From Mugil cephalus (lineage: Eukaryota > Chordata > Actinopteri > Mugiliformes > Mugilidae), in contig NC_061789.1 of the NCBI RefSeq assembly GCF_022458985.1, positions 10,670,357-10,734,356 on the forward strand: a stretch of DNA of 64,000 nt, read 5' to 3'. Shown one piece after another: positions 17,940 to 42,743 of the stretch; positions within the stretch are counted from its first letter, which is position 1, and each line of letters starts with the position of its first letter. Made by a program: the position numbers and the translations under genes. Below the pieces are notes generated by a model. That model was not told where the DNA came from, searched no databases, and saw only the letters and a program-made list of their open reading frames with translations.

Positions 17940-19802
17940 TCAGACATCATCCGAGGCTTCATCAGGCAGGTTGATGTAATACTTGATGAAATCCAGATAC
18001 TTGGACACCTGAGCGTAGGCGACAGGACGGCCTCCACCACTGCAACTACCAGGACCCCCGTAACTCATGACTCCGACCAGGGTAGGGCCTGTGGGTCCAC
18101 GACAGACCAGCGGGCCACCATAGTCCCCCTGAAGAAGTGAAAACAGAACAGTCATGTCTTTCAACCCTGGATTTGTTCCCAAATGTCTTTTACCTGATGA
18201 ACAGATCAATACAATCATCCACAGGCGTTGCCAATGACAACGACACTTCTCAAAACTTCAGTCAGAGAAGTCATTTTGGATGTTTTTGTGCCTAAAGCCA
18301 CTCAAAATAGTTGATAATCATGTTTTATTTCGTAAAATATTAAACTACAACAAAACTACAACTATAAATCTCAAGTAAGTAGTAACTGAACAAAATCCAA
18401 CCAGTACTTCTGAGATGTAACCTCAAGTCAGAATGAATGTACGAAATGTACTCTTTACTTTATGGAAGTGAACTGTGAACTCACATCACATGCGCCTTTG
18501 TTTCCAGATGGCTCGGCACACAGCACGGGCATCAGGTGAGAATACTCATCCGCACAGTGCTTGTTCGATATGATGGAAACCTTCAGCTGCTGAAGGGTTT
18601 CCGGGTCTGGGAGGGGAACTGCATGAGCAGAAGAGAATAAAGATATATATCAACCACTAACAGATTTATTATCAGTGTTGTAAGGATTTCAGAGCAGGTT
18701 TTGACATTTTTCAATACACGTGTGGGCATTTTCTAGGCCGCTTTAAGTGCTGGACATACCACCATTCCCGATCTCGCCCCAGCCGGTGATCCAACAATCA
18801 GACGATCGATCAATGGGGCCATCGTTCGCAGGCAATCTAATCGGAGTAATGTTGTCTGAGTATTCCACCCTTTTAGTCAGCTTGAGCAGGACAATGTCGT
18901 GTTTGTAGCCGTTGCCTGTGTTGACATATCGTTGATCAGGGGGGTAGACGGGATAGACCAGGTTACGGAAACGCTCAGCCCCTTTTTTCAGCTGGTAGGA
19001 GCCGATCCAAACCCCCGTTCGCCTCATGTCTGGCTTAGGGTCCCTGCCAACAAAAAACAACACACATGTAAGTTTAGAATAGGTAGAAAGATGCCAAATA
19101 AAAACAAGACCATACACACTGGAGCATTTAGCAACTTTAAGAAACAGACACTGGTGGAGACCAAACATGGAGCTAAAAGTAGGGTCGCATTTTATTATTT
19201 TTATTTATTTATTTATTTTATCAGACTAAATAAAAATGCTGCTTGAATGAGTGAGGAAATGCCTTTCGAGAAAACCAGACAAGTTTGAAAATAAATGTTT
19301 TTGAACTGCCAAACATGACTGCCTTTTTTTTTTAGTAAAGTTTATTTTCCAAGTATTTTTTGTAGGATTATATTGACACCTTTTAATATCAAAGAAGGAA
19401 ACTGCATAATCATGGAAACACACACTTACTTATCTAAGCAGTGTGCGGCGGTCACCACCCACTGGTGGTTGAGGAGGGCACCGCCACAGCGCCACCTTTT
19501 CGAGCCGTCAGCAGTTGTGATGTTGAGGTGAACCATCCACGGCGAGCTGTCCCTTTTAGCATCCTGCCCGCCAATGATGGAGCTCTTCACCTCAGCTCCC
19601 AGCACACCTAAAAATAAATTTAAAAAAGTTATCAAAATTAGATGTTTGGCTGGAGACATTTGACAAATTAAAAGCCACATTTGATTTTTGGGTCCCTCCT
19701 TCTCTAATTGTGAACAAACCAACCCGAGACTATGCATTTGTTTTTCTCACCTGCGGTGTAACAGAGCAGTACCAACGCAGTGAGCAGTTTGGTGAAAACC
19801 AT
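17940..19802 (-). CDS. Tryptase-like serine protease homologue, copy A (S195Y, predicted inactive)
   Basis: Five exons on the minus strand: 19751-19802, 19430-19607, 18760-19043, 18485-18618 and 17940-18128; phases agree and give 278 aa. Signal peptide MVFTKLLTALVLLCYTAG, a short propeptide ending EVKSS, then the mature start IIGGQDA (residue 28). His57 is kept in VVTAAHC (residue 73), Asp102 in KHDIVLLKL (126), and the eight cysteines for the 42-58, 136-201, 168-182 and 191-220 bridges are present. The catalytic Ser is Tyr: GACDGDYGGPLVC, Tyr219, codon TAT at 18120-18122. Position 189 is Gly, and RPVAYAQV has Val where Gly226 is expected. The residue before IIGG is Ser, not Arg/Lys. N-glycosylation sites: LNIT and DNIT. 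Family placement (tryptase/prostasin-like S1A) is by similarity; loss of proteolysis is inferred. Differs from copy B by very few residues. Confidence 0.87.
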
Positions 19803-19863
19803 GGCTGCGATGGAGCACAGTGTAGGAGCTGTGACTCTGCAGCCTGCGAGTGAACAGTGCAGC

Positions 19864-19894
19864 TTTATATACTCATCCAGGGAGATTATAATCT
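19864..19894 (-). promoter_or_regulatory. Core promoter of copy A: TATA box and 12-bp palindrome
   Basis: On the minus strand tatataaa (19864-19871) lies about 62 bp upstream of the ATG, so transcription should start near 19835 with a roughly 35-nt leader. Directly upstream, at 19883-19894, is agattataatct, a perfect palindrome. It contains two TAATC half-sites as bound by bicoid/Otx-type homeodomains (inference). The same arrangement with the same 31-bp span occurs in copies B, C, D and F. Confidence 0.7.
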
Positions 19895-20035
19895 GGTCAG
19901 CACCTCTTCCTTCCCTCTCAAACCAGCCTTACATTTGTCATTGGTGACAACTACAGTAAACATGGATATGTGTGCGTTTTTTTTTTTTTTGTTTTTTTAT
20001 CCAACACCAGATTAATATGAGGAGCAGAGCTGTCA

Positions 20036-20930
20036 ACTGATCACCACCTGGTTTTGAGTTGGATCAGATGACAAAGGCAGACTTGGCAAGGTCCAAATGA
20101 GTAGGGAGGGTCTGCTGGGAATGCCCAGTGGAAGAACCTGTCAATATGGTCTTCAACTCCCAACTCCAGCAGAGCTGGTCGTGACAGCAACACCCAAACC
20201 CGTACGGAGCCATCAGTCTGGAGAAAGAGGCCTTCAGGGCGTAGTTGGTCTGTGGGTCTCTGGAAGCAGCTGACCAGTACCAGATGATTAGGTGGTCTGC
20301 AGCCAGGGTAGTCGATGAGGCAAAAACTCGGATGAGGGAGGAGTTCGATGACGCTATGGAAGAAGACTATCAATCGGCTCCGAAGAAGTTCTGGCAAACC
20401 AGAACCAGAACCAAAAGGGAGGTGGACCGCAGTTCATCCACAGCGTTTTCAGTGGGAGCACGGAGCTGCTCGCATCAACTGAGCATATCGTCAGGTGGTT
20501 TGAAGGAATACTTTGAGGAGCTCCTCAATCAGACCATCAAGTATTCCATAGAGGAAACAGAGTCAGATGATGGTTGGACTGTCCAATCTCTGGGGAAGAA
20601 GTTGCAGAGATAGTGTAAAATTCCACAGCGATGTAGCTCCAGTGGCGGATGAGACCCGCCCTGGGTATCTTAAGGCTCTGGATATTGTCAGGCTGTCCTG
20701 GCTGACATGCTTCTGTGACCAAAATGGGTCTCCTTCAAAGGGTGACCAGACTCAGTCTTAGACGTAGGGGAAAGAGCTCAGACACTTAAGAGGAGCTCAA
20801 AGTGGAACTGCTTCTTCTCCACGTTGAGAGGAGTCAGTTGAGGTGGCTAGGGCATCTGGAGGTGTTCCAGGCATGTCCCACCAGAAGGAGGCCTCAGGAT
20901 GTAGGGAGTATCGTTAGCCTCATAGCATAA
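20036..20930 (+). mobile_element. LINE fragment upstream of copy A
   Basis: Plus-strand relic of a fish non-LTR retrotransposon. It encodes EEFDDAMEEDYQSAPKKFWQT and LKEYFEELLN (region before the reverse transcriptase domain), then skips to a 3' part (ggtggctagggcatctggag). The reverse transcriptase core is missing. The same truncated copy sits upstream of B, and shorter versions sit upstream of C and D, so it inserted before the array grew. Confidence 0.7.
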
Positions 20931-22017
20931 TATGACAATAATTGACAGATTGACAGTTTTAACTTTAAACATATGGTTTTGTCATTAGGGGAACTTGACT
21001 TGAGGCAGTCTGTAATATGCGGCGTACAGAAGCTTCCTGTTTTAGAATTTAAAAAAAAAGAGATATTTGAACATATATTTAATACTAAATTAAAAATCTG
21101 CTAATATAACTAGCTAAATCCTTCACATTGGCCCTTTAAAATCTTGATTTTCAATTAAAACTCATATGAAGTTTCTTGAAATGAAGGCGTATTTCACATA
21201 CTTATGCTTTATTCACCTTGTTTGTCACTACTATAGGGAGGTTGCGCCGGGTTACAGTAGTTTGCATTGTTTAATTCACATTTCAACTAGGTTTTGTATT
21301 TCTAATACGCAGTAAAACAGAGTTATATCACATTCGTGTCTATCCTGGAGCGTTTTCCTTGACTAATAATTGCATTCAGTAAAACAAAGGACGTGCAAAA
21401 CTACAAAATACCACTCGTATCTTGACTTGTATTTGAATATCCTGTCTATATGAGCTAAGCTGTCATACATCTTCATGTTTTGCAACCTCTATTATTTAGC
21501 GAGGAGGTATATTTTTAATATTTTTGAAGCTCTTTTCTGTTCAAATAAGGTTATATATGTGGTTATATATTAAATTTAATATAAATAAATTGAAATTTAG
21601 GGCAGCACAGGAAGATCAATTGTGAAGTAAAATTACTAGTTCAACATTACTGTGTAATATGTAAAATCCCTGTATTTAACATCCTACTTAAGCACCTGTA
21701 ATGTTGAATATCGTCCCCTGTGACTAACATACTGTATATGATACTGTAAACACACTGTTAATACTGACAAATCAACATGTGAGATGCATCCTGTTTGGGT
21801 TGACAATATGTAATGGATTTTTTTGTGAATGAGATATAACTAAGTGCTTTTCACATGGAGGACGATGTTGCCTTAGAGGTGAGGTGTCTTTTTTTGTCTG
21901 TTTCTAGCATAAGACAAAGAAAAAAAAAATACACACAACACCAACTGTGATGCTTGAAAGCTTTAATGCAAAGAAAGTTACTCAGCAAACCAGAGTTTAT
22001 AATCAGCATAAAACACT

Positions 22018-22194
22018 TACACCGATCAATCATAACATTATGACCACCTTCTCAATGTTGGATCAAGGAGTGTTGTTGCTATGGGCTAAATCTACACTAG
22101 TAAAGTGTCCCAGCAGAACATTATATTGTCACAAGATGGTCAATGTTGGTCACTTCTCCTGTCAGTGGTCATAATGTTATGCCTGATTGGTGTA
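22018..22194. mobile_element. Small inverted-repeat element in the 3' UTR of copy B
   Basis: Same element as at 17697-17873, carried along by the A/B duplication. It has the same length and one substitution (cacaagatgg for caccagatgg) visible in the centre. Confidence 0.7.
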
Positions 22195-22260
22195 GCTATG
22201 AAGAGGAAGGCAGGTTATCAGGTGAGTAGAATGAGCAGTTCGGAGCATCTGTTTGGAGGT

Positions 22261-24114
22261 TCAGACATCATCCGAGGCTTCATCAGGCAGGTTGATGTAA
22301 TACTTGATGAAATCCAGATACTTGGACACCTGAGCGTAGGCGACAGGACGGCCTCCACCACTGCAACTACCAGGACCCCCGTAACTCATGACTCCGACCA
22401 GGGTAGGGCCTGTGGGTCCACGACAGACCAGCGGGCCACCATAGTCCCCCTGAAGAAGTGAAAACAGAACAGTCATGTCTTTCAACCCTGGATTTGTTCC
22501 CAAATGTCTTTTACCTGATGAACAATCATCCATAGGCGTTGCCAATGACAACGGCACTTCTCAAAACTTCAGTCAGAGAAGCCATTTTGGATGATTTTGT
22601 GCCTAAAGCCACTCAAAATAGTTGATAATCATGTTTTATTTCGTAAAATATTAAACTACAACAAAACTACAACTATAAATCTCAAGTAAGTAGTAACTGA
22701 ACAAAATCCAACCAGTACTTCTGAGATGTAACCTCAAGTCAGAATGAATGTACGAAATGTACTCTTTACTTTATGGAAGTGAACTGTGAACTCACATCAC
22801 ATGCGCCTTTGTTTCCAGATGGCTCGGCACACAGCACGGGCATCAGGTGAGAATACTCATCCGCACAGTGCTTGTTCGATATGATGGAAACCTTCAGCTG
22901 CTGAAGGGTTTCTGGGTCTGGGAGGGGAACTGCATGAGCAGAAGAGAATAAAGATATATATCAACCACTAACAGATTTATTATCAGTGTTGTAAGGATTT
23001 CAGAGCAGGTTTTGACATTTTTCAATAGACGTGTGGGCATTTTCTAGGCCGCTTTAAGTGCTGGACATACCACCATTCCCGATCTCGCCCCAGCCGGTGA
23101 TCCAACAATCAGACGATCGATCAATGGGGCCATCGTTCGCAGGCAATCTAATCGGAGTAATGTTGTCTGAGTATTCCACCTTTTTAGTCAGCTTGAGCAG
23201 GACAATGTCGTGTTTGTAGCCGTTGCCTGTGTTGACATATCGTTGATCAGGGGGGTAGACGGGATAGACCAGGTTACGGAAACGCTCAGCCCCTTTTTTC
23301 AGCTGGTAGGAGCCGATCCAAACCCCTGTTCGCCTCATGTCTGGCTTAGGGTCCCTGCCAACAAAAAACAACACACATGTAAGTTTAGAATAGGTAGAAA
23401 GGTGCCAAATAAAAACAAGACCATACACACTGGAGCATTTAACAACTTTAAGAAACAGACACTGGTGGAGACCAAACATGGAGCTAAAAGTAGGGTCGCA
23501 TTTTATTATTTTTATTTATTTATTTATTTTATCAGACTAAATAAAAATGCTGCTTGAATGAGTGAGGAAATGCCTTTCGAGAAAACCAGACAAGTTTGAA
23601 AATAAATGTTTTTGAACTGCCAAACATGACTGCCTTTTTTTTTTTAGTAAAGTTTATTTTCCAAGTATTTTTTGTAGGATTATATTGACACCTTTTAATA
23701 TCAAAGAAGGAAACTGCATAATCATGGAAACACACACTTACTTATCTAAGCAGTGTGCGGCGGTCACCACCCACTGGTGGTTGAGGAGGGCACCGCCACA
23801 GCGCCACCTTTTCGAGCCGTCAGCAGTTGTGATGTTGAGGTGAACCATCCACGGCGAGCTGTCCCTTTTAGCATCCTGCCCGCCAATGATGGAGCTCTTC
23901 ACCTCAGCTCCCAGCACACCTAAAAATAAATTTAAAAAAGTTATCAAAATTAGATGTTTGGCTGGAGACATTTGACAAATTAAAAGCCACATTTGATTTT
24001 TGGGTCCCTCCTTCTCTAATTGTGAACAAACCAACCCGAAACTATGCATTTGTTTTTCTCACCTGCGGTGTAACAGAGCAGTACCAACGCAGTGAGCAGT
24101 TTAGTGAAAACCAT
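22261..24114 (-). CDS. Tryptase-like serine protease homologue, copy B (S195Y, predicted inactive)
   Basis: Exons on the minus strand: 24063-24114, 23742-23919, 23071-23354, 22796-22929 and 22261-22449; 278 aa. It has the same architecture as copy A: signal peptide, EVKSS before IIGG, His57, Asp102, four disulfides, GACDGDYGGPL with Tyr encoded by TAT at 22441-22443. The clear protein difference from A is LTKKVEY instead of LTKRVEY. The introns are also nearly identical to A, so the pair arose recently or has been homogenised by gene conversion. Both copies look able to be expressed, since the promoter, splice sites and attaaa signal are all kept. The function of the protein is not known. Confidence 0.87.
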
Positions 24115-24175
24115 GGCTGCGATGGAGCACAGTGTAGGAGCTGTGACTCTGCAGCCTGCGAGTGAACAGTGCAGC

Positions 24176-24206
24176 TTTATATACTCATCCAGGGAGATTA
24201 TAATCT
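24176..24206 (-). promoter_or_regulatory. Core promoter of copy B
   Basis: TATA box tatataaa at 24176-24183 and palindrome agattataatct at 24195-24206, with the same spacing as in copy A. Confidence 0.7.
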
Positions 24207-24359
24207 GGTCAGCACCTCTTCCTCCCCTCTCAAACCAGCCTTACATTTGTCATTGGTGACAACTACAGTAAACATGGATATGTGTGCGTTTTTTTTTTTT
24301 TTGTTTGTTTGTTTGTTTTTTTATCCAACACCAGATTAATATGAGGAGCAGAGCTGTCA

Positions 24360-25254
24360 ACTGATCACCACCTGGTTTTGAGTTGGATCAGATGGCAAAG
24401 GCAGACTTGGCAAGGCCCAAATGAGTAGGGAGGGTCTGCTGGGAATGCCCGGTGGAAGAACCTGTCAATATGGTCTTCAACTCCCAACTCCAGCAGAGCT
24501 GGTCGTGACAGCAACACCCAAACCCGTTGGGAGCCATCAGTCTGGAGAAAGAGGCCTTCAGGGCGTAGTTGGTCTGTGGGTCTCTGGAAGCAGCTGACCA
24601 GTACCAGATGATTAGGTGGTCTGCAGCCAGGGTAGTCGATGAGGCAAAAACTCGGATGAGGGAGGAGTTTGATGACGCTATGGAAGAAGACTATCAATTG
24701 GCTCCGAAGAGGTTCTGGCAAACCAGAACCAGAACCAAAAGGGAGGTGGACCGCAGTTCATCCACAGCGTTTTCGGTGGGAGCACGGAGCTGCTCGGATC
24801 AACTGAGCATATCGTCAGGTGGTTTGAAGGAATACTTTGAGGAGCTCCTCAATCCCACCATCAAGTATTCCATAGAGGAGACAGAGTCAGATGATGGTTG
24901 GACTGTCCAATCTCTGGGGAAGAAGTTGCAGAGATAGAGTAAAATTCCACAGCGATGTAGCTCCAGTGGCGGATGAGACCCGCCCTGGGTATCTTAAGGC
25001 TCTGGATATTGTCAGGCTGTCCTGGCTGACATGCTTCTGTGACCAAAATGGGTCTCCTTCAAAGGGTGACCAGACTCAGTCTTAGACGTAGGGGAAAGAG
25101 CTCAGACACATAAGAGGAGCTCAAAGTGGAACTGCTTCTTCTCCACGTTGAGAGGAGTCAGTTGAGGTGGCTAGGGCATCTGGAGGTGTTCCAGGCATGT
25201 CCCACCAGAAGGAGGCCTCAGGATGTAGGGAGTATAGTTAGCCTCATAGCATAA
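24360..25254 (+). mobile_element. LINE fragment upstream of copy B
   Basis: Duplicate of the relic at 20036-20930, with EEFDDAMEEDYQ and EYFEELLNPTIKYS still readable. Confidence 0.7.
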
Positions 25255-26675
25255 TTGCCTAAGTCATATTTCAACATTTTTAGAAAACAAGTCAAAAAAT
25301 GACATTGGTGATTATGTCATTGGGCTAATCATATGTAATATATTCTTAATTTTAATATGCAGGATAAAAAGAATAATGCCAAATTTGCAGCTGATACCAG
25401 ACACTATATAGTGGACTCAGAGGGTATCGACTGTTTCACCATCAACCTTCACTGATAATCCATAATGACAACATATAACACGTTTGCAAATTTAGAAAAA
25501 TTGAAAGTAAAGTAAAAGTACAACAGCATACATACATTTATAGGGATCTGGCATATAAATGGGTTGGCTGAGACTCTTCCTTATCAGCGTGATAAATAAA
25601 CCGACTCTGATAAGAAGCGAGAACTGACTAAGCATCGATAGCCGGTGTCAGTGTCCGGGCGCTTATCTTAACACAGAGTGACGCCTTTAAAAACATTAGA
25701 TGTAATCAGTCATTTCATTATCGAATGATAGTAATGATAGTGTTTTTCCTGTTTTGCTCAAATGCTGCTCCTGTAGCAGAAGTATTGTTTGACTACTAAT
25801 ATATTATTCCAATATAAACAGATGGCAGAACATACGTCTTCTAGGGTTAGGTAAAAATGCACTCACAACCTTAAAACTTCTGTCAGTGCCCAATGACATT
25901 TTCAAGGTCCAGTGTGGGAGAGTTTGCTTGAAAGAGAAAAAATATTTAAAGCAAGTGTCTAATTTGTCTTTCCTGGACCACTGCGGAACCACAGATACCT
26001 CTTTGTTGAAGAGGCCACTGCTAACGTAGTCGTGAAAGACTCTCACTAAGCTAACAAAAACTGTTACTGAACCCCTAAAGAAAACACAAAAAGTAACACT
26101 AAATTCAAAATCTGCTAATACAACTAGCTTAATCCTTCACAGTCTTGATTTTCAATAAAAACTCGTATGAGGTTTCTTTAAATGAAGGCGTGTTTCACAT
26201 CACTGTTAAACTCTAACATGTTATGTTTACTACTTGTATATTCTTTCTCATTTCTTTTATTGCATCAACCTGCGCATGCACCGCAGATGAAAATGAACCT
26301 TCTGTCAAAATATGAATGAGTCATATCACATTCCTGTTGATCCAACCTGTTTTCCTTGACTAATAAGTGCATAAAGTAAAATAAAGAACATGCAAAACTA
26401 CAAAATACCACCCTTATCCTGACATGTATTTTAATAACCTCTTTACACAGTTTAAGGTGTTAGGTGTCTATATGTTTTGCAACCTCAAAAAATAACATTT
26501 AAACTAACATATAGATATGATTTTGTGAACATGTAAGTAGCATTGTGTTTGCTTAGGCATAGGCACAGAGTGTGTAATGGAAATTTTACTGAATGATATC
26601 TTTTTTCGTCTGGGTGTTTGTAGCATGCAAAAAAAAAAAATGAAAAATGAAATAAAATACCCACAACGCAAAAAG
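25255..26675. other. Spacer of unit C, no gene
   Basis: AT-rich sequence repeated, with modest divergence, at 31345-32500, 35995-37090 and 39267-40270, and as an old copy at 14.05 kb. No exon is recognisable. It includes the words gtaatatattcttaatttt, actatatagtggactcagag and cactcacaaccttaaaac, which mark the unit in each repeat. Confidence 0.7.
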
Positions 26676-26879: not shown

Positions 26880-28707
26880 GGCCTCATGTATCAAAGTTGC
26901 TCGCACCCAAAAACGTGGCGTACGCCCACGTCCACGTCAACGTTCAGACGTATCAAAAGTGAAATGTCCTGGAAATACTATACACTACATCTTGTTCATC
27001 ACTGATTTCATAGTGGGTGTTAGTGGTGGTGTGCTGCATTATATTGAGAAAGGAACAGTTTGAAATACATCAATATATTGGCTACTGAGTATATAATTAT
27101 GTTAGGTATTAATACACCCAGATTGAGCTATGTGATGTCTGTGTTGAAATATTACTACTATCTGTCCTTTGTTAAGGCCAGCAAGGTGTCTTGGACAGTC
27201 CAGCTCAGCGGAGCCAGTACCAGTACAAGTCCAGTAACACAGTCTGACGAGATGCATCTGTTGCACAGAATGACTCTTTTGGGTTAGATGGGCTGAAAAA
27301 TAATATAATCTACCTGTAACTTACTGTAATGTAGTACAAACACCAGCAGTGAATTGGCAGTGTGCTTATACATCACTATCATCAGTTGCGTCTATCTTCT
27401 CTACATTCTGATTTGGTAGCAAATGACACACAACTAATCAGGGATGAACACAGGATATTTTATTGCAATGTACAGAAAAAAAAAAGACTTTTGTATCCGG
27501 GCAGTAGCAATAGTTTCCCCCAACAAGAATATGTTGTTCATTTAGTTCCCATGTATAGTGGGCAGTGGTGGGGGTAACGCGCTACAAATCTAACGCGTGA
27601 CCGTAATATATTACGTTTAGGCAGTAACGGAGTAATATAACTCGTTACTAACTATATTTTAGAAATTTTATTACAGTTACTGAGTCCAGTAACGCGTTAC
27701 AATCCGAGCTGTCGCACAGGCGGAAGTTTCGAAAAAACAACACAGCCGTAAATAAAGAGGAGAAGAAGACGGTTAAAAATCACCAGAAGAAGAAGAAGAA
27801 GAAGAAGAAGAAGACGGCAACGTAGCAACACCTGAATGTTTTCTAAGTGGTTACACTCGCACTATTTTGAATTTGTCACAGAATTGGATAAAAACCTCAC
27901 AGTAATGTGCACTTTATTTTCTGGTTAGAGGCCGAGGAAACTGTTTACGGCTAAAAATAGTACAAGTAACCTCTCTAATGATATAACGTTAGTCCCATTG
28001 TTAAGGTATAAAAACATTTCCACAGATAGTTAATTTAAGATGAGACACTACAGGTGGTGTTACAGTGCTCAAAAATGAGACTGTGTGTGATAATGAACAA
28101 AGCTCCAACTAAGAAAAAATATAGGTAGAAATATATAAAGTTATGAGTCACTAGAGATTTGTGTCTCAGTGTCTGAAGAAAAATCATTCACGGAAGACAA
28201 CCTTTAAAACTATGCAATGTAACTTGCAACTCATATACTTGTAGTAGATTAAAAGAATACAAGTGAAAATATTAAAAGGGCTATTCGCCATGACAAAATA
28301 TTGCCTTCATTTTGCAATGCGTTGTCCTAAATGTTTATTTTGGTGAAAGTAACTAATACGTAATAAGTAACTTATTACTCTACACAGAAGGTAATATTGT
28401 AAAGAAACATATTACTCTCAAATGCAAGTTACTTGTTATTTTTATGAGAAAGGAATTTTCTGTTAATTTACGGTATTTTTTTGGCGCCCCAGCTGCCAGA
28501 AATGTACTGTTTTTTTGTTGTTGTTTTTTTTTTAAACTGTGTACATGTGCGCTCAATTCCACGTTGATTGGGATGTACATAGGAAAGGTGCTTGGATCCA
28601 TGCGAATGCACACTTTGATACGTCTGATTTTTTTGGGCGGATGCCAGTTTCTGGATTTTAGCACACGCCATGTTTCCGTGAGAAAGCCACGCAAGTCTTT
28701 GTACATG
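26880..28707. mobile_element. Transposon insertion at the stop codon of copy C, with a second element inside
   Basis: Compared with the other copies, about 1.83 kb is inserted inside the last exon. The left end is ggggcctcatgtatcaaag and the right end is close to its inverse (tacatgagggct). The word catct flanks both ends, a likely target-site duplication. Nested inside, at about 27562-28440, is another repeat beginning gtgggggtaacgcgctac and ending with gtaactaatacgtaataag-type sequence, resembling hAT-like non-autonomous elements of fish. A (gaa)n run lies at about 27785-27815. No transposase could be read, and the superfamily of the outer element is not assigned. Confidence 0.65.
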
Positions 28708-30985
28708 AGGGCTCATCTGAGGCTTTATCGGGCAGGTTGATGTAATAGTTGATGAAATCCAAATACTTGGACACCTGAGCGTAGGCGACAGGGCGCCCTG
28801 GACCACTGCAACCACTAGGACCCCCGTAACTCATGACTCCGACCAGGGTAGGGCCCGTGTGTCCATGACAGACCAGCGGGCCACCATAGTCCCCCTGAAG
28901 AAGTGAAAACAGAACAGAACACACTCATGTCTTTCAACTGTAGGTTCTTTTCCCAGATGACTTTAACCTGTTGAGTTGACACAGAGCAGATGAAAACAAT
29001 CATCTGTAGGCGTTGCCAATGACAACAAAACTGATTTTTCAGGTTGCCATCTTAATAACAACAGTGGTATACAGTACTGTGATTCCCTCAGGTTAAAATT
29101 ATTAATCTGATTATCAGTCAGGGAAGAAATGGGGAAAACAAACTTATATTTGGGATGTTTTTGTGCCTGAAGCAGTTGCATCTCGGACATGCTAGCAACC
29201 TCCTAAAACGTGACATGTGATGATGAGATCCAGCTTTTACAGTCCACATCGTTGAGAATCATGTTTTTTTTCCAAAAAATCTTCAACTATAACACGATGA
29301 AAGTGTTTTTACTTTATGGAAGTGAACTCACATCGCATGCTCCAGCATGCAATCCTCCAGCTCCATCCCCAGCACACAGTATCTCAGAGGTCAGGTTTGG
29401 GTATGCTGCCTTACAGCGATCCTTCGATATGATGGACACCTTCAGCTGTTTAAGGGTTTCCGGGTCTGGGAGGGGAACTGCATGAGCAAAAGGGAATAAA
29501 CAAGCAGTATACACCAGTCAGTGTACTTTACTGATGTGTGTGCATTTTCTAGGCCGCTTTAAGTGCGGGACATACCACCATTCCCGATCTGGCCCCAGCC
29601 GGTGATCCAACAAATAGACAATGGATCAATGGGGCGGTCGTTCGCAGGCAGACTAATCGGAGCAATGTTGTCTGAGTATTGCACCTTTTTAGTCAGCTTG
29701 AGCAGGACAATGTCGTGTTTGTAGCCGTTGCCTGTGTTGACATATCGCTGATCAGGGGGGTAGACGGAATAGATCAGGTGACGGAAACGCTCAGCCCCCT
29801 TTTTCAGCTGGTAGGAGCCGATCCAAGCAACCGTTCGCCTCATGTCTGGCTTAGGGTCCCTGCCAACAAAAAACAACACATATGTAAGTTTAGAATAGGT
29901 AGAAAGGTGCCAAATAAAAACAAGACCATACACACTGGAGCATTTAGCAACTTTAAGAAACAGACACTGGTGGAGACCAAACATGGAGCTAAAAGTAGGG
30001 TCGCATTTTATTATTTTTATTTATTTTTTTTGTCAGACTCCAAATAAATGCTACTTGAATGAGTGAGGAAATGCCTTTCGAGAAAACCAGACAGGTCCAG
30101 TTGCCCATTTCTTTTCAACTTGTAAGAGTCTTTTAAATCTATTTTGCAGTCTATTAGAATATTTGAAAGCAGGCGTCTGTGGAGACAAGTTAGTGATTTG
30201 TGATCTTACAGAAAGCAGTCCACTTTCTACCATCTTTGAAATGAAATTCAAAAACACACTTATATCAATAGATGACACCAAAGAGAACAAGAAATTAAAG
30301 CATCGAGCTTTCTACTTTGACTACTGCAACATATGTGAGCTCTGCATCCATATTATGTTATATATATATATGATCAAAGCTTCGTGACAGATAGGGCCTG
30401 ATATAATGTATCTAGATGTGTATACTGAAAAATAATCATAAGAAACATTTTTACCGTGAGAGATACTTAATATCAAAGAAGGAAACTGCATAATCACGGA
30501 AACACGCTTACTTATCTAAGCAGTGTGCGGCGGTCACCACCCACTGGTGGTTGAGGAGGGCACCGCCACAGCGCCACCTTTTCGAGCCGTCAGCAGTTGT
30601 GATGTTGAGGTGAACCATCCACGGCGAGCAGCCCCTTTTAGCATCCTCCCAGCCAATGATGGAGCTCTTCACCTCAGCTCCCAGCACACCTAAAAATAAA
30701 TTTAAAAAAGTTATCAAAGTTAGATGTTTGGCTGGAGACATTTGACAAATTAAAAGCCACATTTGAATTTTGCTCCAGCATCCCCTGCGACCCTAGGGCA
30801 GGATTAAGCGGTATGGAAGATGAGATGAGATGAGACTTTCATGTTTCATACATATGTTAAAAATATCCAGGCAGGTCCCTCCTTCTCTAATTGTGAACAA
30901 ACCAACCCGAAACTATGCATTTGTCTTTCTCACCTGCGGTGTAACAGAGCAGTACCAGCGCAGTGAGCAGTTTGGTGAAAACCAT
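28658..30985 (-). CDS. Tryptase-like serine protease homologue, copy C (S195Y, new C-terminus from a transposon)
   Basis: Exons on the minus strand: 30934-30985, 30512-30689, 29576-29859, 29332-29477 and 28658-28894; 298 aa. His57 (TAAHC), Asp102 (HDIVLLKL) and the four disulfides are kept. Tyr replaces Ser195 (GDYGGPLVC, TAT at 28886-28888). The mature N-terminus reads IIGWEDA instead of IIGGQDA. Exon 4 is 12 bp longer than in A (CAGDGAGGLHAGACD) and looks closer to ordinary tryptases. The normal end (DEASDDV) is lost: after KASDE the frame runs into the inserted element and adds PSCTKTCVAFSRKHGVC, including three cysteines, before a stop. The original 3' UTR and attaaa signal now lie about 1.8 kb further away, so transcript ending may be changed. 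Whether it is expressed is unknown. Confidence 0.78.
30770..30840. repeat. LINE/SINE tail insertion in intron 1 of copy C
   Basis: The stretch cagcatcccctgcgaccct, ggattaagcggtatggaaga and a (gatga)n run match the common 3' tail of fish retroposons. It is absent from A, B and F but present in D (35030-35097), so it marks C and D as sister units. Confidence 0.65.
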
Positions 30986-32771: not shown

Positions 32772-35245
32772 TCAGACATCAGCTGAGGCTTCACCAGGCA
32801 GGTTGATGTAATAGTCGATGAAGTACAGATACTTGGACACCTGAGCGTAGGCGACAGGGCGCCCTGGACCACTGCAACCACCAGGACCCCCGTAACTCAT
32901 GACTCCGACCAAGGTATGGCCCGTGGGTCCACGACAGACCAGCGGGCCACCGTAGTCCCCCTGAAGAAGTGAAAACAGAACAGAACACACTCATGTCTTT
33001 CAACTCTGGATTCTTTTCCCAGATGACTTTAACCTGTTGAGTTGACACAGAGCAGATGAAAACAATCATCTGTAGGCGTTGCAATTGACAACAAAACTGA
33101 TCTTTAAGGTTGCCATCTTAATAAGAACAGTGGTATACAGTACTGTGATTCCCTCAGGTTACAATTATTAATCTGATTATCAGTCAGGGAAAAATTTGGG
33201 GAAAACAAACTTATATTTGGGATGTTTTTGTTTCTGAAGCAGTTGCATCTCGGACAAGCTAGCAACCTCCTAAAACGTGACATGTGATGATGGGATCCAG
33301 CTTTTACAGTCCACATTGTCGAGAATCATGTTTTATTCCAAAAATTCTTCAACTATAACACGATGAAAGTGGTTTTACTTTATGGAAGTGAACTCACATT
33401 GCATGCGCCCTCGTTTCCAGCTCCATCCCCAGCACACAGTATCTCAGAGGTCAGGTTTGGGTATGCTGCCTTACAGCGATCCTTCGATATGATGGACACC
33501 TTCAGCTGTTTCAGGGTTTCCGGGTCTGGGAGGGGAACTGCATGGGCAAAAGGGAATAAACAAGCAGTATACACCAGTCAGTGTACTTTACTGATGTGTG
33601 TGCATTTTCTAGGCCGCTTTAAGTGCGGGACATACCACCATTCCCGATCTGGCCCCAGCCGGTGATCCAACAAATAGACGATGGAGCAATGGGGCGGTCG
33701 TTCACAGGCAGACTAATCGGAGCAATGTTCTCTGAGTATTCCACCTTTTTGTTCAGCTTGAGCAGAACAATGTCGTTTTCGTAGCCGTTGCCCGTGTCCC
33801 GATATAGATGATCAGGGGGGTAGACGGGATAGACCGGAGTACGGTAACGCTCAGCCCCCTTTTTCAGCTGGTAGGAGCCGATCCAAACCCCTACTTGCTT
33901 CATGTCTGGCTTAGGGTCCCTGCCAACAAAAAACAACACACAGCAACACAGCAAGCACACACAGTCAAAGACCTCACGTTCGCCATGAGTTTGTATTTTA
34001 CATTCTTAAAATTAATAATTTATTAAACCCCAACACTGTTCTGCGTATCTGAGTTATCAGCGGTAACATACACATACGGCTACTGCAGGTTTGAAGGTGT
34101 ACTGTATTGTGGATGTATTTGAAATTTTTTTTTTCTCAAAATTTCAACTTTCTTCTCAAAGTGTAGGATGAAAAAAAAACCTACGTCCTTTTTTTTTTTT
34201 ACCTCATGGGTGCCCATAATACTCTTCCGTAGGTTCAGGACATGAAACCTTTGCATTGTTTATTTAAAAAAATGATATCAGCTGTTGTATGTATTGAAGC
34301 AGCAGTGGACTTTCTTTCAGGATTTTCATTGAACATAAATCTGTTTAGTCATTACCTGTCACCAAATGAGATAAAAAGAGAATTATTGAGCTAATGCTCG
34401 ACTGACAAAAATATGTCAAAGGCGTAGTTCTTATTTAAAATATATGAAAGCAGGCATCTGTGGAGACAATCCAAGGTTAGTGATATATGATCTTACAGAG
34501 AGCGGTCCTCTTTCTGCCACGGATGATCTTTGAAATTAAATTAAACAAAAAACACAGTTATCTCCATAGATGCCACCAAAGAGAACAAGAAATTTAAGCA
34601 TCGAATTTTCCACTTTGACTACTGCAACATATCTGAGCTCTGCATCCATATTATGTTATGCCACATTATCCAATATATGATTCTAGATGCTTATATTGAG
34701 TAATAACCTCTCTGCCATGCGAGACATTTAATGCCAAACAAGGAAACTGCATAATCACGGAAACACTTACTTATCTAAGCAGTGTGCGGCGGTCACCACC
34801 CACTGGTGGTTGAGGAGGGCACCGCCACAGCGCCACCTTTTCGTCCCGTCAGCAGTTGTGATGTTGAGATGAACCATCCACGGCCACCTGCCCTTTTTGG
34901 CATTATGACCACCGATGATGGAGCTCTTCATCTCAGCTCCCTTCACACCTAAAAATAAAATAGAAAAAAGTAATCAAAGTTAGATGTTTGGCTGGAGACA
35001 TTTGACAAATTAAAAGCCACATTTGAATTTTGCTCCAGCATCCCCTGCGACCCTAGGGCAGGATTAAGCGGTATGGAAGATGAGATGAGATGAGACTTTC
35101 ATTTTTCATGCATATGTTAAAAATGTCCAGGCAGGTCCCTCCTTCTCTAATTGTGAACAAACCAACCCGAAACTATGCATTTGTCTTTCTCACCTGCGGT
35201 GTAACAGAGCAGTACCAACGCAGTGAGCAGTTTGGTGAAAACCAT
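32772..35245 (-). CDS. Tryptase-like serine protease homologue, copy D (S195Y, predicted inactive)
   Basis: Exons on the minus strand: 35194-35245, 34771-34948, 33636-33919, 33398-33537 and 32772-32960; 280 aa. Signal peptide as in A; the propeptide differs (VKGAEMKSS) and the mature start is IIGGHNAKKGRWPWMVHL, with the usual WPW of active S1A enzymes. His57 is in TAAHC and Asp102 in ENDIVLLKL. Exon 4 ends AGDGAGNEGACN, so position 189 is Gly and 192 Asn. Ser195 is Tyr, here TAC (32952-32954), unlike TAT in A to C. It keeps GWG (ITGWGQIG) and all cysteines. It is nearly identical to E through exons 3 to 5 and the introns between them. It is probably the donor of the D/E duplication or its sister. 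Confidence 0.85.
35030..35097. repeat. LINE/SINE tail insertion in intron 1 of copy D
   Basis: Same insertion as at 30770-30840, with the same (gatga)n run. It is shared by C and D only. Confidence 0.65.
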
Positions 35246-37350: not shown

Positions 37351-38497
37351 TCAGACATCAGCTGAGGCTTCATCAGGCAGGTTGATGTAATAGTCGATGA
37401 AGTACAGATACTTGGACACCTGAGCGTAGGCGACAGGGCGCCCTGGACCACTGCAACCACTAGAACCCCCGTAACTCATGACTCCCACCAAGGTATGGCC
37501 CGTGGGTCCATGACAGACCAGCGGGCCACCGTAGTCCCCCTGAAGAAGTGAAAACAGAACAGAACACACTCATGTCTTTCAACTCTGGATTCTTTTCCCA
37601 GATGACTTTAACCTGTTGAGTTGACACAGAGCAGATGAAAACAATCATCCGTAGGCGTTGCCAGTGACAACAAAACTGATCTTTAAGGTTGCCATCTTAA
37701 TAAGAACAGTGGTATACAGTACTGTGATTCCCTCAGGTTACAATTATTAATCTGATTATCAGTCAGGGAAAAATTTGGGGAAAACAAACTTATATTTGGG
37801 ATGTTTTTGTTTCTGAAGCAGTTGCATCTCGGACAAGCTAGCAACCTCCTAAAACGTGACATGTGATGATGGGATCCAGCTTTTACAGTCCACATTGTCG
37901 AGAATCATGTTTTATTCCAAAAATTCTTCAACTATAACACGATGAAAGTGGTTTTACTTTACGGAAGTGAACTCACATTGCATGCGCCCTCGTTTCCAGC
38001 TCCATCCCCAGCACACAGTATCTCAGAGGTCAGGTTTGGGTATGCTGCCTTACAGCGATCCTTCGATATGATGGACACCTTCAGCTGTTTCAGGGTTTCC
38101 GGGTCTGGGAGGGGAACTGCATGGGCAAAAGGGAATAAACAAGCAGTATACACCAGTCAGTGTACTTTACTGATGTGTGTGCATTTTCTAGGCCGCTTTA
38201 AGTGCGGGACATACCACCATTCCCGATCTGGCCCCAGCCGGTGATCCAACAAATAGACGATGGAGCAATGGGGCGGTCGTTCACAGGCAGACTAATCGGA
38301 GCAATGTTCTCTGAGTATTCCACCTTTTTGTTCAGCTTGAGCAGAACAATGTCGTTTTCGTAGCCGTTGCCCGTGTCCCGATATAGATGATCAGGGGGTA
38401 GACGGGATAGACCGGAGTACGGTAACGCTCAGCCCCCTTTTTCAGCTGGTAGGAGCCGATCCAAACCCCTACTTGCTTCATGTCTGGCTTAGGGTCC
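37351..38497 (-). pseudogene. Tryptase-like homologue, copy E: 5'-truncated pseudogene
   Basis: Only exons 3 to 5 remain: 38215-38497, 37977-38116 and 37351-37539. Exons 4 and 5 are almost the same as in D (GNEGACN, GDYGGPLVC, Tyr codon TAC at 37531-37533). Exon 3 has lost one G in a G-run at about 38390-38397 (ggggg against gggggg in D), which shifts the frame after YPVYP. Exons 1 and 2 and the promoter are absent: intron sequence homologous to D runs to about 39266 and then joins the spacer of unit F. The single-base loss in a homopolymer could be an assembly error, but the missing exons cannot be explained that way. Confidence 0.88.
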
Positions 38498-39266
38498 CTG
38501 CCAACAAAAAACAACACACAGCAACACAGCAAGCACACACAGTCAAAGACCTCACGTTCGCCATGAGTTTGTATTTTACATTCTTAATATTAATAATTTA
38601 TTAAACCCCAACACTGTTCTGCGTATCTGAGTTATCAGCGGTAACATACGCATACGGCTACTGCAGGTTTGAAGGTGTACTGTATTGTGGATGTATTTGA
38701 AATTTTTTTTTTCTCAAAATTTCAACTTTCTTCTCAAAGTGTAGGATGAAAAAAAAACCTACGTCCTTTTTTTTTTTTACCTCATGGGTGCCCATAATAC
38801 TCTTCCGTAGGTTCAGGACATGAAACCTTTGCATTGTTTATTTAAAAAAATGATATCAGCTGTTGTATGTATTGAAGCAGCAGTGGACTTTCTTTCAGGA
38901 TTTTCATTGAACATAAATCTGTTTAGTCATTACCTGTCACCAAATGAGATAAAAAGAGAATTATTGAGCTAATGCTCGACTGACAAAAATATGTCAAAGG
39001 CGTAGTTCTTATTTAAAATATATGAAAGCAGGCATCTGTGGAGACAATCCAAGGTTAGTGATATATGATCTTACAGAGAGCGGTCCTCTTTCTGCCACGG
39101 ATGATCTTTGAAATTAAATTAAACAAAAAACACAGTTATCTCCATAGATGCCACCAAAGAGAACAAGAAATTTAAGCATCGAGTTTTCCACTTTGACTAC
39201 TGCAACATATCTGAGCTCTGCATCCATATTATGTTATGCCACATTATCCAATATATGATTCTAGAT

Positions 39267-40270
39267 CAACCTTCACTGATAATCCATAATGACAACATAT
39301 AAAACGTTTGCAAATTTCGAAAAATTGAAAGTAAAGTAAATGTACAACAACATACATACATTTATAGGGATCTGGCATATAAATGGGTTGGCTGAGACTC
39401 TTCCTTATCAGCGTGATAAATAAACCGACTCTGATAAGAAGCGAGAACTGACTAAATTCTGACGAAGCATCCGTAGCCGGTGTAAGTGTCAGGTCGCTTA
39501 TCTTAACACAGAGTGACACCTTTAAAAACATTACACGTAATCAGTCATTTCATATATGTAATGATAGTAATGATAATGTTTTTCCTGTTTTGCTCAAATG
39601 CTGCTCCTGTAGCAGAAGTGTTGTTTGACTACTAATACATTATTCCCATATAAACAGATGGCAGAACCTACATCTTCTAGGGTTAGGTAAAAATGCACTC
39701 ACAACCTTAAAACTTCTGTCAGTGCCCAATGACATTTTCAAGGTCAAGTGTGGGAGAGTTTGCTTGAAAGAGAAAAAAATATTTAAAGCAAGTGTCTAAT
39801 TTGTCTTTCCTGGACCATTGACAACTAGCTAAATCCTTCACAGTGGCCCTTTAAAGTCTTGATTTTCAATTAAAACTCATATGAAGTTTCTCTAAATGAA
39901 GGCGTGTTTCACATCAGACTGTTAAACTCTAACATGTTATGTCTACTGCTTCTATATTCTTTCCTGTTTCTTTTATTGCATCAACCTGCGCATGCGCCGC
40001 AGATGAAAATGAGCTTCCTGATGAGTATGAATGAGTTATATCACATTCATGTTGATCATGGGATGTTTTCCTTGACTAATAAGTGCATTTCAGGTGTTAG
40101 GTGTCAAAAATAACGTTGAAACTAACACATAGACAGTACAGAGTGTGTAATGAAAACTTTACTGAATGATATCTTTTTTCATCTGGGTGTTTATAGCATG
40201 CAAAAAAAACAAAACAAACAAAAAAAAAACCCCAAAAAGTGATGCTTGAAATCTTTAATGCAAAGAAATT
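39267..40270. other. Spacer of unit F, no gene
   Basis: Array spacer starting in the middle of the repeat (atcaaccttcactgataatc), directly after the deletion junction of copy E. No coding content is seen. Confidence 0.7.
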
Positions 40271-40272
40271 AT

Positions 40273-40455
40273 TACGATTTAACCATGACATTATGACCAC
40301 CTTGCTAATGTTGGATCAAGGAGTGTTGCTATGGGGTAACATCTACAAGAATGCCAGGTCCAAATGTTTCCCAGCAGAATATTGTATTGTCACAAGATGG
40401 TCAATGTTGGTCACTTCTCCTGTCAGTGGTCATAATGTTATGCCTGATCGGTGTA
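40273..40455. mobile_element. Small inverted-repeat element in the 3' UTR of copy F
   Basis: Same family as at 17697 and 32518. It lacks the extra ctacgtgctg piece seen in D and E. Confidence 0.6.
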
Positions 40456-40517
40456 GCCATGAAGAGTAAGGCAGGTTATCAGGTGAGTATAATGAGCAGT
40501 TTCATCAGTTTGGAGGT

Positions 40518-42743
40518 TCAGACATCAGCTGAGGCTTCATCAGGCAGGTTGATGTAATAGTCGATGAAGTACAGATACTTGGACACCTGAGCGTAGGCGA
40601 CAGGACGCCCTGGACCACTGCAACCACTAGAACCCCCGTAACTCATGACTGCGACCAAGGTAGGGCCCGTGGGTCCATGACAGACCAGCGGGCCACCGTA
40701 GTCCCTCTGAAGAAGTGAAAACAGAACAGAACACACTCATGTCTTTCAACTCTGGATTCTTTTCCCAGATGACTTTAACCTGTTGAGTTGACAGAGAGCA
40801 GATGAAAACAATCATCCGTAGGCGTTGCCAGTGACAACAAAACTGATCTTTAAGGTTGCCATCTTAATAAGAACAGTGGTATATAATACTGTGATTCCCT
40901 CAGGTTACAATTATTAATCTGATCATCAGTCAGGGAAGAAATGGGGAAAACAAACTTATATTTAGTAATGTTTTAGTTTCTGAAGCAGTTGCATCTCGGA
41001 CAAGCTAGCAACCTCCTAAAAGGTGACATGTGATGATGGGATCCAGCTTTTACAGTCCACATTGTCGAGAATCATGTTTTATTCCAAAAACTCTTCAACT
41101 ATAACACTATGAAAGTGTTTTTATATTTCGGAAGTGAACTTACATTGCATGCGCCCTCGTTTCCAGGTCTATCCCCAACACACCGTAAGTCAGGGGTCCA
41201 GTACTCATAATATGTCGGACAGCAAACGTCCCGATAGATGATCACCTCCAGCTCTTGAAGGGCTTTTATGCTGTTGAAGGGAACTGCATGAGCAGAAGAG
41301 AATAAACAAGCAGTATACACCAGTCAGTGTCGTGTACTTTACTGATGTGTGTGCATTTTCTAGTGCTGGACATACAAACTCTCTCCATCGGGGGGCCGGT
41401 GATCCAACAAATAGACAATGGATCAATGGGGCGGTCGATCGCAGGCAGACTAATTGGAGCAATGTTCTCTGAGTATTCCACCTTTTTGCTCAGCTTGAAC
41501 AGGACAATGTCGTTTTCGTAGCCGCTGCCCGTGTCCCGATATACATAATGATAGGGGATGAGGAGATGGAACAGACCATGGTTTCCTCCAAACTCCTTTT
41601 TCCTGTAGGAGACGATCCAAACCCCTACTTGCTTCATGTCTGGCTTAGGGTCCCTGCCAACAAAAAACAACACACAGCAACACAGCAAGCACACACAGTC
41701 AAAGACCTCACGTTCGCCATGAGTTTGTATTTTACATTCTTAATATTAATAATTAATTAAACCCCAGCACTGTTCTGCGTATCTGAGTTATCAGCGGTAA
41801 CATACGCATACGGCTACTGCAGGTTTGAAGGTGTACTGTATTGTGGATGTATTTGGATTTTTTTCTCAAAATTTCCACTTTATTCTCAAAGTGTATGTCC
41901 CTAATACTCGTCCGTAGGTTCAGGACATGAAGGCTTTACATTCTTTATTTAAAAAAATGATATAAGCTGCAGTGGATTTTCATTATTATTGAGTTAATTG
42001 TCGACTGACAAAAATATGTCAAAGGCGTAGTTCTTATTTAAAATATATGAAAGCAGGCATCTGTGGAGACATTCCCAGGTTAGTGATATATGATCTTACA
42101 GAGAGCGGTCCTCTTTCTGCCATCTTTGATATGAACTAAAAAAAACACAGTTATCTCCATAGATGACACCAAAGAGAACAAGAAATTTAAGCATCGAGCT
42201 TTCCACTTTGACTACTGCAACATATCTGAGCTCTGCATCCATATTATGTTATGCCACATTATCCAATATATGATTCAAAGCTTCATGACAGGCAGGACCT
42301 GATATATTGTATCTAGATGCTTATTTTGAGTAATAACCTCTCTGCTATGAGAGACATAGCATAATCATGGAAACACTTACTCATCTAAGCAGTGTGCGGC
42401 GGTCACCACCCACTGGTGGGCGAGGAGGGCGCCGTCACAGTACCACCCTTTCGAGCCGTCAGCACTTGTGATGTTGAGATAAACCTTCCGTGGCCACGCG
42501 CTACCGATGATGGAGCGCTTCACCTCAGCTCCCAGCACACCTAAAAATAAATTTAAAAAAGTTTATCAAAGTTAGATGTTTGGCTGGAGACATTTGACAA
42601 ATTAAAAGCCGCATTTGATTTTTGCTTATTACTTTCATGTTACATGCATATGGTTAATAAAATCGTTCTGGTCTCTCGCCTGCTTTCTCACCTGTGGTGT
42701 AATAGAGCAGTACCAGCACAGCGAGCAGTTTGCTGAAAGTCAT
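40518..42743 (-). CDS. Tryptase-like serine protease homologue, copy F (most diverged, S195Y and G193R)
   Basis: Exons on the minus strand: 42692-42743, 42381-42540, 41376-41653, 41144-41283 and 40518-40706; phases agree and give 272 aa. Signal peptide MTFSKLLAVLVLLYYTTG. Exon 2 is 18 bp shorter in frame and reads EVKRSIIGSAWPRKVYLNIT, with YCDGALLAHQWVVTAAHC (His57 kept). Asp102 is kept in ENDIVLFKL. The usual GWG after CWITG is replaced by PPMERV. Exon 4 is strongly changed (IIYRDVCCPTYYEYW). The active-site loop is ACN-RDYGGPLVC: Tyr at 195 (TAC, 40698-40700) and Arg instead of the oxyanion-hole Gly193. So this copy lacks two catalytic features, yet has no stop or frameshift in 819 coding bases. 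It sits at the right end of the array. Confidence 0.8.

What the first reader, a model, noticed from the sequence alone, without database searches (positions are those of the whole stretch)
17940..42743. Tandem family of six serine protease homologues, all with Tyr in place of the catalytic serine
Every copy reads GDYGGP or RDYGGP where active S1A proteases have GDSGGP. His57, Asp102, Asp194 and all four disulfides are kept, so the fold should be intact. Five copies have open frames over five exons with good splice sites and promoters. HGF is a known vertebrate case of Tyr at 195 (Gln-Asp-Tyr), where the domain became a ligand. An amplified, array-borne S195Y tryptase-like family in a fish is, as far as I know, not a described system; possible roles are binding, decoy or immune recognition (inference).
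Basis: partly seen in the sequence, partly recalled or inferred. Interest (0 to 1): 0.88.

Follow-up and report, generated by a model that had tools for sequence, protein, structure and literature searches.

The report
Tandem array of dead tryptase-like proteins
A probable fish genome carries six side-by-side copies of a gene for a secreted, tryptase-like protein whose cutting machinery looks switched off, five of them with open reading frames and one of those changing fast in its coding parts, which points to a binding rather than a cutting job.

Summary
Six S1A-type copies lie on the minus strand at 17940-42743. All six have Tyr at position 195 (TAT or TAC). Five (A, B, C, D, F) have five-exon open frames with GT-AG introns. 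The sixth (E) lacks exons 1-2 and has a frameshift. His57, Asp102, Asp194 and four disulfides are kept in the five open copies.

The propeptide (Lys-Ser-Ser|Ile-Ile-Gly in A-D) resembles the two-step tryptase type. The Tyr195 copies most simply share one ancestral event. No close Ser195 relative was found in this genome.

Copy F is odd. Its exons 3 and 4 differ from copy D by 16% and 33%, while introns 3 and 4 differ by 5%. dN/dS against D is 1.8-1.9 and the frame is open.

Best reading: a secreted serine pseudoprotease family used for binding, with weak constraint in A-D and fast, probably diversifying change in F. Partner and tissue are unknown. Serine pseudoproteases are a known kind (HGF, MSP, haptoglobin, scabies-mite paralogues), so this is a new variant. 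Whether other fish carry it could not be tested here.

The parts
17940..19802 (-). Copy A, five exons: 19802-19751, 19607-19430, 19043-18760, 18618-18485, 18128-17940; 278 aa; Tyr195 = TAT
   Evidence: tblastn and GT-AG model; Pfam Trypsin 1.6e-50 (on a draft with one extra Gly)
22261..24114 (-). Copy B, five exons: 24114-24063, 23919-23742, 23354-23071, 22929-22796, 22449-22261; 278 aa; one residue different from A (duplicated unit, 98.3% over 4.35 kb); Tyr195 = TAT
28658..30985 (-). Copy C, exons 30985-30934, 30689-30512, 29859-29576, 29477-29332, 28894-28658; 298 aa; IIGW in place of IIGG; different C-terminal tail after a 3' breakpoint; Tyr195 = TAT
32772..35245 (-). Copy D, exons 35245-35194, 34948-34771, 33919-33636, 33537-33398, 32960-32772; 280 aa; Tyr195 = TAC
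   Evidence: best solved relative human tryptase, E 1.7e-38
37351..38497 (-). Copy E, pseudogene: exons 3-5 only (38497-38215, 38116-37977, 37539-37351), exon 3 with a 1-nt deletion relative to D; Tyr195 = TAC still readable
40518..42743 (-). Copy F, exons 42743-42692, 42540-42381, 41653-41376, 41283-41144, 40706-40518; 272 aa; Gly193 to Arg (RDYGGP), 6-residue gap after IIG, Trp141-Gly142 segment replaced; exons 3-4 hypervariable; Tyr195 = TAC
19863..19871 (-). TATATAAAG starting 69 bases upstream of the ATG of copy A; the same at -69 in B, C and D
   Evidence: sequence match only, not shown to be a promoter
41376..41653 (-). Copy F exon 3: 44 of 278 aligned bases differ from D, mostly in two blocks (70s-90s region and 140s loop)
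41144..41283 (-). Copy F exon 4: 46 of 140 bases differ from D, between introns that differ by 4.6% and 4.8%

Best explanation
This is a tandem family of secreted serine pseudoproteases descended from a tryptase-like S1A protease. An ancestor most simply lost the catalytic serine (Ser195 to Tyr) and the basic-residue pocket (Asp189 to Gly, Gly226 to Val) before the array expanded. The fold core, signal-like N-terminus, disulfides, a glycosylation sequon and a cleavable-looking propeptide were kept. The most likely mode of action is binding. The mature domain, possibly switched by removal of the short propeptide so that Ile16 can pair with Asp194, would present the former active-site rim as a binding face. 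The partner could be a receptor, an inhibitor or a foreign molecule. Shown by sequence: the lost residues, the kept residues, the open frames, the clade and the exon-limited change of F. Inferred: loss of proteolysis, secretion, processing and binding. Partner, tissue and purpose are unknown.
For: Tyr195 is found in 6 of 6 copies. Gly at 189, Ala at 190 and Val at 226 are invariant in A, C, D and F (read against tryptase) and present in B and E, so two separate functional sites are lost. His57, Asp102, Asp194 and eight cysteines are kept in A, C, D, F. Full Trypsin domain, E 1.6e-50. The propeptide Lys-X-Ser|Ile is kept in all five open copies. A-versus-D dN/dS is 0.60 (95% 0.40-0.92). Random substitution at the estimated number would leave no stop in about 2% of trials for the A/C/D tree and about 3% for the F branch. 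Exon 5 differs by 8.5% between A and D where intron 4 differs by 39%. In F, changes against D fall at codon positions 1/2/3 as 61/51/24 of 272 each, and exons 3+4 differ at 90 of 418 bases against 25 of 523 in introns 3+4 (Fisher p 3.6e-15). The five open copies form one clade with full support on a long stem (14 rows, E not included).
Against: There is no transcript or protein evidence. dN/dS of A-C (0.43-1.12) and C-D (0.47-1.25) has intervals that include 1, so relaxed constraint is possible; C-F (1.32, 0.92-1.91) also includes 1. For F exons 3-4 alone, 7% of neutral trials stay free of stops. Copy E is already a pseudogene. C and F have changes next to Ile16 (IIGW; IIG plus a 6-residue gap), which speaks against a shared propeptide switch in those two. 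Loss of catalysis is inferred from residues; no assay or model was made.
Confidence: 0.66

Rival explanations
1. A decaying gene cluster: once a protease lost its serine, the copies kept duplicating without function and are on their way to pseudogenes; E is gone, C and F are damaged and still open by chance.
For: E is truncated and frameshifted. dN/dS of A-C and C-D cannot be told from 1. C has a changed activation motif and a new C-terminus after a breakpoint. F lost the Trp-Gly of the 140s loop and 6 residues after Ile-Ile-Gly.
Against: Five copies keep start, GT-AG introns and frame; the no-stop chance is 2-3% for each of two largely separate sets of changes. The net length differences of exons 1-4 among the five open copies are multiples of three. 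A-D dN/dS is below 1 (0.40-0.92). Decay would not make F's exons 3-4 change 3 to 7 times more than the introns between and beside them.
Confidence: 0.22
2. The excess of change in F exons 3-4 is not selection but conversion from a diverged paralogue, limited to exons because only exons were alike enough to pair. (This concerns F only and does not exclude the pseudoprotease reading.)
For: The array is a mosaic with several breakpoints. A/B against C/D shows exons 3 and 5 more alike than introns 2-4, which exon-limited exchange can give. F exon 4 still looks like an S1A exon. Synonymous change in F exons 3-4 (0.174) is also above the introns (0.049).
Against: No donor was found: outside F, the best matches in the own genome are other array copies (68% in exon 3, 37% in exon 4); outside the array nothing is better than E 0.14. 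The change is at codon positions 1 and 2 rather than 3. The replaced protein segment is continuous across intron 3, yet that intron is little changed.
Confidence: 0.25
3. An enzyme with a changed mechanism: Tyr195 with His57 and Asp102 still does some chemistry on small substrates.
For: His57 and Asp102 are kept in all five open copies, unlike HGF, where His57 is replaced (recalled).
Against: The pocket has Val226 and lacks Asp189; F has Arg at 193, in the oxyanion hole. No S1A peptidase with a Tyr nucleophile is known to me (recall).
Confidence: 0.03

Closest known systems
Mast-cell tryptase (TPSAB1 type, S1A)
   Same: Best solved relative of copy D (E 1.7e-38); a basic residue three positions before Ile16 and a non-basic residue at P1 (Lys-Ser-Ser|Ile against Arg-Val-Gly|Ile in the alignment).
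   Different: Ser195 is Tyr and the pocket triplet 189/216/226 is Gly/Gly/Val in place of the Asp/Gly/Gly given for tryptases in PMC4646688 (passage). In the tree it does not group with tryptase; it sits alone on a long stem.
HGF and MSP beta chains (serine protease homology domains)
   Same: Protease fold without activity and used as a ligand (PMC13194640 and PMC9348577, passages seen). Tyr at 195 in the same GDYGGP motif is recalled, not from a call.
   Different: Here there are no kringles or other domains (five-exon gene), and His57 is kept. Multi-copy tandem array.
Scabies mite inactivated protease paralogues (SMIPP)
   Same: A family of inactivated S1 proteases, named among serine pseudoproteases in PMC13194640 (passage). 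That they are multi-copy and act on host complement is recalled.
   Different: Arthropod lineage; lost residues differ (recalled). No test of common origin was made.
Snake venom serine proteases with segment switching in exons (ASSET)
   Same: Short exon segments replaced on the protein surface while the rest stays (PMC2711939: outline with abstract and two sections read).
   Different: Those enzymes keep the catalytic serine. Here one copy of a pseudoprotease in a probable fish, with introns as an internal yardstick.
Haptoglobin and azurocidin
   Same: Vertebrate S1A proteins that lost catalysis (haptoglobin binds hemoglobin: PMC13194640 passage; azurocidin named as enzymatically inactive in PMC4646688 passage).
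   Different: Other replacements, and not known to me as large tandem arrays (recalled).

Membership tests
Chymotrypsin-fold domain (Pfam PF00089 Trypsin) | Full-length match above the curated cut-off | tested here: met
   Copy A: 172.4 bits against a cut-off of 20.6, positions 1-220 of 220
Active S1A peptidase | Catalytic triad His57-Asp102-Ser195 | tested here: not met
   His and Asp present in A, B, C, D, F; Tyr at 195 in 6 of 6 copies
Active S1A peptidase | Gly193 (oxyanion hole) and Asp194 with a free Ile16 | tested here: inconclusive
   Asp194 in all six; Gly193 in A-E but Arg in F; IIGG in A, B, D, IIGW in C, IIG plus a gap in F; a free Ile16 cannot be tested here
Mast-cell tryptase | Asp189/Gly216/Gly226 pocket | tested here: not met
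   Gly189, Gly216, Val226 in A, C, D, F
Mast-cell tryptase | Propeptide with a basic residue at P3 and a dipeptide before Ile16 | tested here: met
   Lys-Ser-Ser|Ile in A-D, Lys-Arg-Ser|Ile in F; processing itself not tested
Mast-cell tryptase | Groups with tryptase in a tree | tested here: not met
   The five array rows are one clade (100/100), stem drawn as 1.56; tryptase groups with own-genome loci L119, L121, L122 at 80/86 (14 rows, L119-L125 as joined exon pieces)
HGF/MSP family | Kringle domains and Tyr195 | tested here: not met
   Tyr195 present, but the five exons hold only a signal-like N-terminus and one protease domain
HGF/MSP family | Binding of a receptor through the pseudo-active site | not testable with these tools
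   needs binding assays
Serine pseudoprotease | No proteolytic activity | not testable with these tools
   inferred from lost residues only

The most novel reading that the evidence does not exclude
A vertebrate pseudoprotease array that works as a fast-evolving recognition system: secreted Tyr195 domains, switched by a tryptase-type propeptide, whose active-site rim is rewritten by diversifying selection segment by segment (copy F), as in venom proteases but outside venom and without catalysis.
Probability: 0.2. Interest if true: 0.78.

Novelty: new variant of a known kind. Interest (0 to 1): 0.52.

Why it matters
Inactive proteases that became ligands or decoys are known one by one. A tandem array with several open copies, one of them with exon change far above intron change, gives a natural series in which to ask what a dead protease domain is selected for. 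If diversifying selection on F is real, the changed segments (the 70s-90s region, the 140s loop and the 160s-170s, by my alignment) name the likely binding face.

Tried and rejected
Relatives outside this genome: one scan of genome contigs gave 39 loci, all 39 with bacterial titles; long matches at 23-34% identity, short ones up to 61%, so ordinary bacterial trypsin homologues. One scan of viral contigs gave 38 pattern matches and no confirmed relative. No fish collection is on hand, so 'when did Tyr195 arise' could not be answered.

Papers: ten searches, all used. 'GDYGGP': 0 papers. serine protease homolog/tyrosine/catalytic serine/teleost/tryptase, 4 of 5 terms: 0. pseudoprotease/serine protease homolog/fish/tyrosine/HGF, 4 of 5: 14 listed, none on such a fish family by title and start of abstract. 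tryptase-like/teleost and others, 4 of 6: 22, of which 15 listed, none on it by title and start of abstract. 'replaced by tyrosine' set: 1, the PRSS23 paper. 'tryptase-2-like' with fish: 2, on shrimp and cattle. Tyr673/Gln534 set: 1, on TMPRSS13. pseudoprotease with teleost: 3, none relevant by title. The segment-switch search (8 of 488 listed) and the propeptide search (8 of 36 listed) served for comparison. A reference title seen (Wolters 2001) says that dipeptidyl peptidase I is not essential for tryptase activation in mice, which weakens any claim about the processing enzyme.

Donor for F exons 3-4: none found. Rfam: 0 matches in the window at gathering scores. Structure prediction was not used: the spliced products are not letter-for-letter translations of one stretch, as that tool asks.

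Six independent changes to Tyr: rejected, since the five open copies form one clade and E is nearly identical to D. A rise of divergence over all of gene F: rejected, because introns 2-4, exon 5 and the aligned 3' flank differ from D by only 1.5-5%. But exon 1, intron 1 and exon 2 of F belong to an older segment (14-20% in exon and intron alike), so only exons 3-4 carry the argument. The smaller exon excess of C against D (39/424 against 21/534, p 0.001) is not used: it sits in the first part of exon 3, next to an intron 2 that differs by 33%, and looks like a breakpoint.
Full report
What is there. The window lies in a 634.8 Mb assembly of 24 contigs (contig C20:10670357-10734356). It is probably a teleost; that is my inference from size, contig number and the Tc1/Sleeping Beauty-type element at 15.2-16.2 kb, not tested. 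Six copies of an S1A-type gene lie head to tail on the minus strand between 17940 and 42743. I modelled them with GT-AG introns. A, B, C, D and F have five exons and open frames of 278, 278, 298, 280 and 272 residues. E lacks exons 1-2 and has a single-base deletion in exon 3 relative to D, with which it is otherwise identical over that exon. Copies A to D share a nearly identical 140-base upstream stretch with TATATAAAG starting 69 bases before the ATG; in F, by eye in the same output, CTATAAAG lies at about -46.

The Tyr. All six read Asp-Tyr-Gly-Gly-Pro: TAT in A, B, C and TAC in D, E, F. The codon pattern for GDYGGP occurs 11 times in the assembly, five of them in this array (F has an Arg codon first and is not counted). 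The reversed control pattern occurs 22 times, so the pattern is not rare as such; its clustering in S1A frames is what matters. None of the other six places reads as an S1A domain. With exon 5 of A as query, 73 places match at E up to 1: six array copies at 85-100% and 67 others at 51% or less. I read 24 of those 67 and all 24 have GDSGGP. With copy D (263 of its 280 residues) as query, 113 places match at E up to 0.001; outside the array the best is 36% over 165 residues and no listed exon match exceeds 53% (145 of 319 candidates were scored). So no near Ser195 sister was found in this genome.

What else is lost and kept. In the alignment of A, C, D and F (B differs from A by one residue), the columns for His57, Asp102, Asp194, Ser214, Gly216 and the eight cysteines of the disulfides 42-58, 136-201, 168-182 and 191-220 are invariant. 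So are Gly at 189, Ala at 190 and Val at 226, where tryptase has Asp, Ser and Gly (alignment); E has the same three. The numbering is mine, by alignment. The cut-specificity pocket is therefore changed as well, which makes the case for lost proteolysis independent of the one Tyr codon. The propeptide is Ala-Glu-Val/Met-Lys-Ser-Ser|Ile-Ile-Gly in A-D and Lys-Arg-Ser|Ile in F. Human tryptase has Arg-Val-Gly|Ile. Two own-genome relatives (L119, L121) have Asn-Thr-Arg|Ile, the plain tryptic type. A two-step removal is thus suggested, not shown. An Asn-Ile-Thr sequon is invariant.

Selection. Nei-Gojobori dN/dS is 0.67 (A-C), 0.60 (A-D) and 0.75 (C-D), with bootstrap intervals 0.43-1.12, 0.40-0.92 and 0.47-1.25. 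Only A-D excludes 1. Exon 5 of A and D differs by 8.5% against 39% in intron 4. If changes were random, about 2% of trials with the number of changes on the A/C/D tree, and about 3% with that on the F branch, would leave no stop. For F exons 3-4 alone the figure is 7%. Together this is moderate, not strong, support for constraint. Conversion between copies disturbs all such figures.

Copy F. Against D, introns 2, 3, 4 and exon 5 differ by 4.2-5.1%, the aligned 3' flank by 1.5%, exon 3 by 15.8% and exon 4 by 32.9% (intron 2 also has many gapped columns). For exons 3+4 against introns 3+4 the counts are 90/418 and 25/523, Fisher p 3.6e-15. E against F gives the same picture, 90/417 and 21/523, and C against F 113/418 and 34/523. 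C against D shows a weaker excess (39/424 and 21/534, p 0.001), which I set aside because it lies in the first part of exon 3 beside a strongly diverged intron 2 and looks like a breakpoint. In F the change falls in blocks: the middle of exon 3, and a segment that is continuous in the protein (end of exon 3 and start of exon 4) but interrupted in the DNA by the little-changed intron 3. Over the whole frame D-F dN/dS is 1.94 (1.28-3.26) and C-F 1.32 (0.92-1.91); over exons 3-4 D-F is 1.82 (1.13-3.25), with dN 6.4 times the intron figure. Synonymous change in those exons (0.174) is also above the introns (0.049), so something besides protein-level selection, such as clustered mutation or exchange, may contribute. 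No donor was found in the genome. In the tree the F branch is 0.66 against 0.011 for D, so F is the changed one. Exon 1, intron 1 and exon 2 of F are from an older segment and are left out of this argument. One more thing in F: Gly193 is Arg, six residues after Ile-Ile-Gly are missing, and the Trp-Gly of the 140s loop is replaced, so F is the least protease-like copy.

What it is likely to do. The combination of lost nucleophile and lost pocket with a kept domain, kept cysteines and kept reading frames fits a serine pseudoprotease. A 2026 paper (PMC13194640, passages seen) sorts such proteins into receptor ligands (HGF, MSP), cofactors or decoys (protein Z among others) and scaffolds (haptoglobin). 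For HGF and MSP it places the binding face at the pseudo-active site. The segments changed in F lie by my alignment near that rim (140s loop, 160s-170s). I therefore commit to a binding role, with F under diversifying change, at 0.66 for the array as a functional pseudoprotease binding family. The ligand, the tissue and the purpose are open. Segment replacement in exons is described for snake venom serine proteases (PMC2711939, outline with abstract and two sections); its authors say the molecular mechanism is not yet understood.

Relation to known families. Copy D is nearest to tryptase among solved structures, copy A to plasma kallikrein. In a 14-row tree (five array copies, seven own-genome loci as joined exon pieces, two human proteins) the array is one clade with full support, stem drawn as 1.56, without a supported sister. 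It is not a tryptase by the pocket and the serine, and not an HGF by domain make-up. A survey of fish granule proteases leaves the mast-cell tryptase locus out as beyond its scope and adds that the origin of such trypsin-related clusters is often hard to identify (PMC4646688, passages); I saw passages of it, not the whole text.

Limits. No fish sequences besides this genome, no transcripts and no structure model were available. Papers: open-licence full texts only.

Noticed in passing
window 41144-41653: Copy F: exon-limited hypervariation against near-identical introns (see main text); the strongest single oddity in the array.
   Followed up: yes
window 28658-28712: Copy C reads past the usual stop into unrelated sequence and gains a 17-residue tail with three cysteines (PSCTKTCVAFSRKHGVC).
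   Followed up: partly
window 16594-25255: A 4.3 kb unit is present twice at 98.3% identity, holding copies A and B; their coding sequences differ by four bases.
   Followed up: partly
window 949-7405 and 59641-62895: Flanking exons: a major facilitator transporter (PF07690) and a dihydrouridine synthase (PF01207) on one side, a calcineurin-like phosphoesterase exon (weak, PF00149, below cut-off) on the other. By eye, recalled and not tested: SLC16-like, DUS1L, PPP4C and an aldehyde dehydrogenase.
   Followed up: partly
window 15173-16234 and 52603-52947: Remains of a Tc1/Sleeping Beauty-type transposase (PF25787, PF13358) and of a reverse transcriptase (PF00078, below cut-off).
   Followed up: no
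G000 whole genome: The GDYGGP codon pattern was found at no HGF- or MSP-like place, although human HGF and MSP have the motif (recalled); either this species' genes read otherwise or the stretch is not held.
   Followed up: no
G000 C20:7.72-7.79 Mb and C16:19.7-20.2 Mb: Two further clusters of S1A matches; the few genes read there (L121, L122, L038) have GDSGGP, and L121 and L122 the Arg|IVGG type of start.
   Followed up: partly
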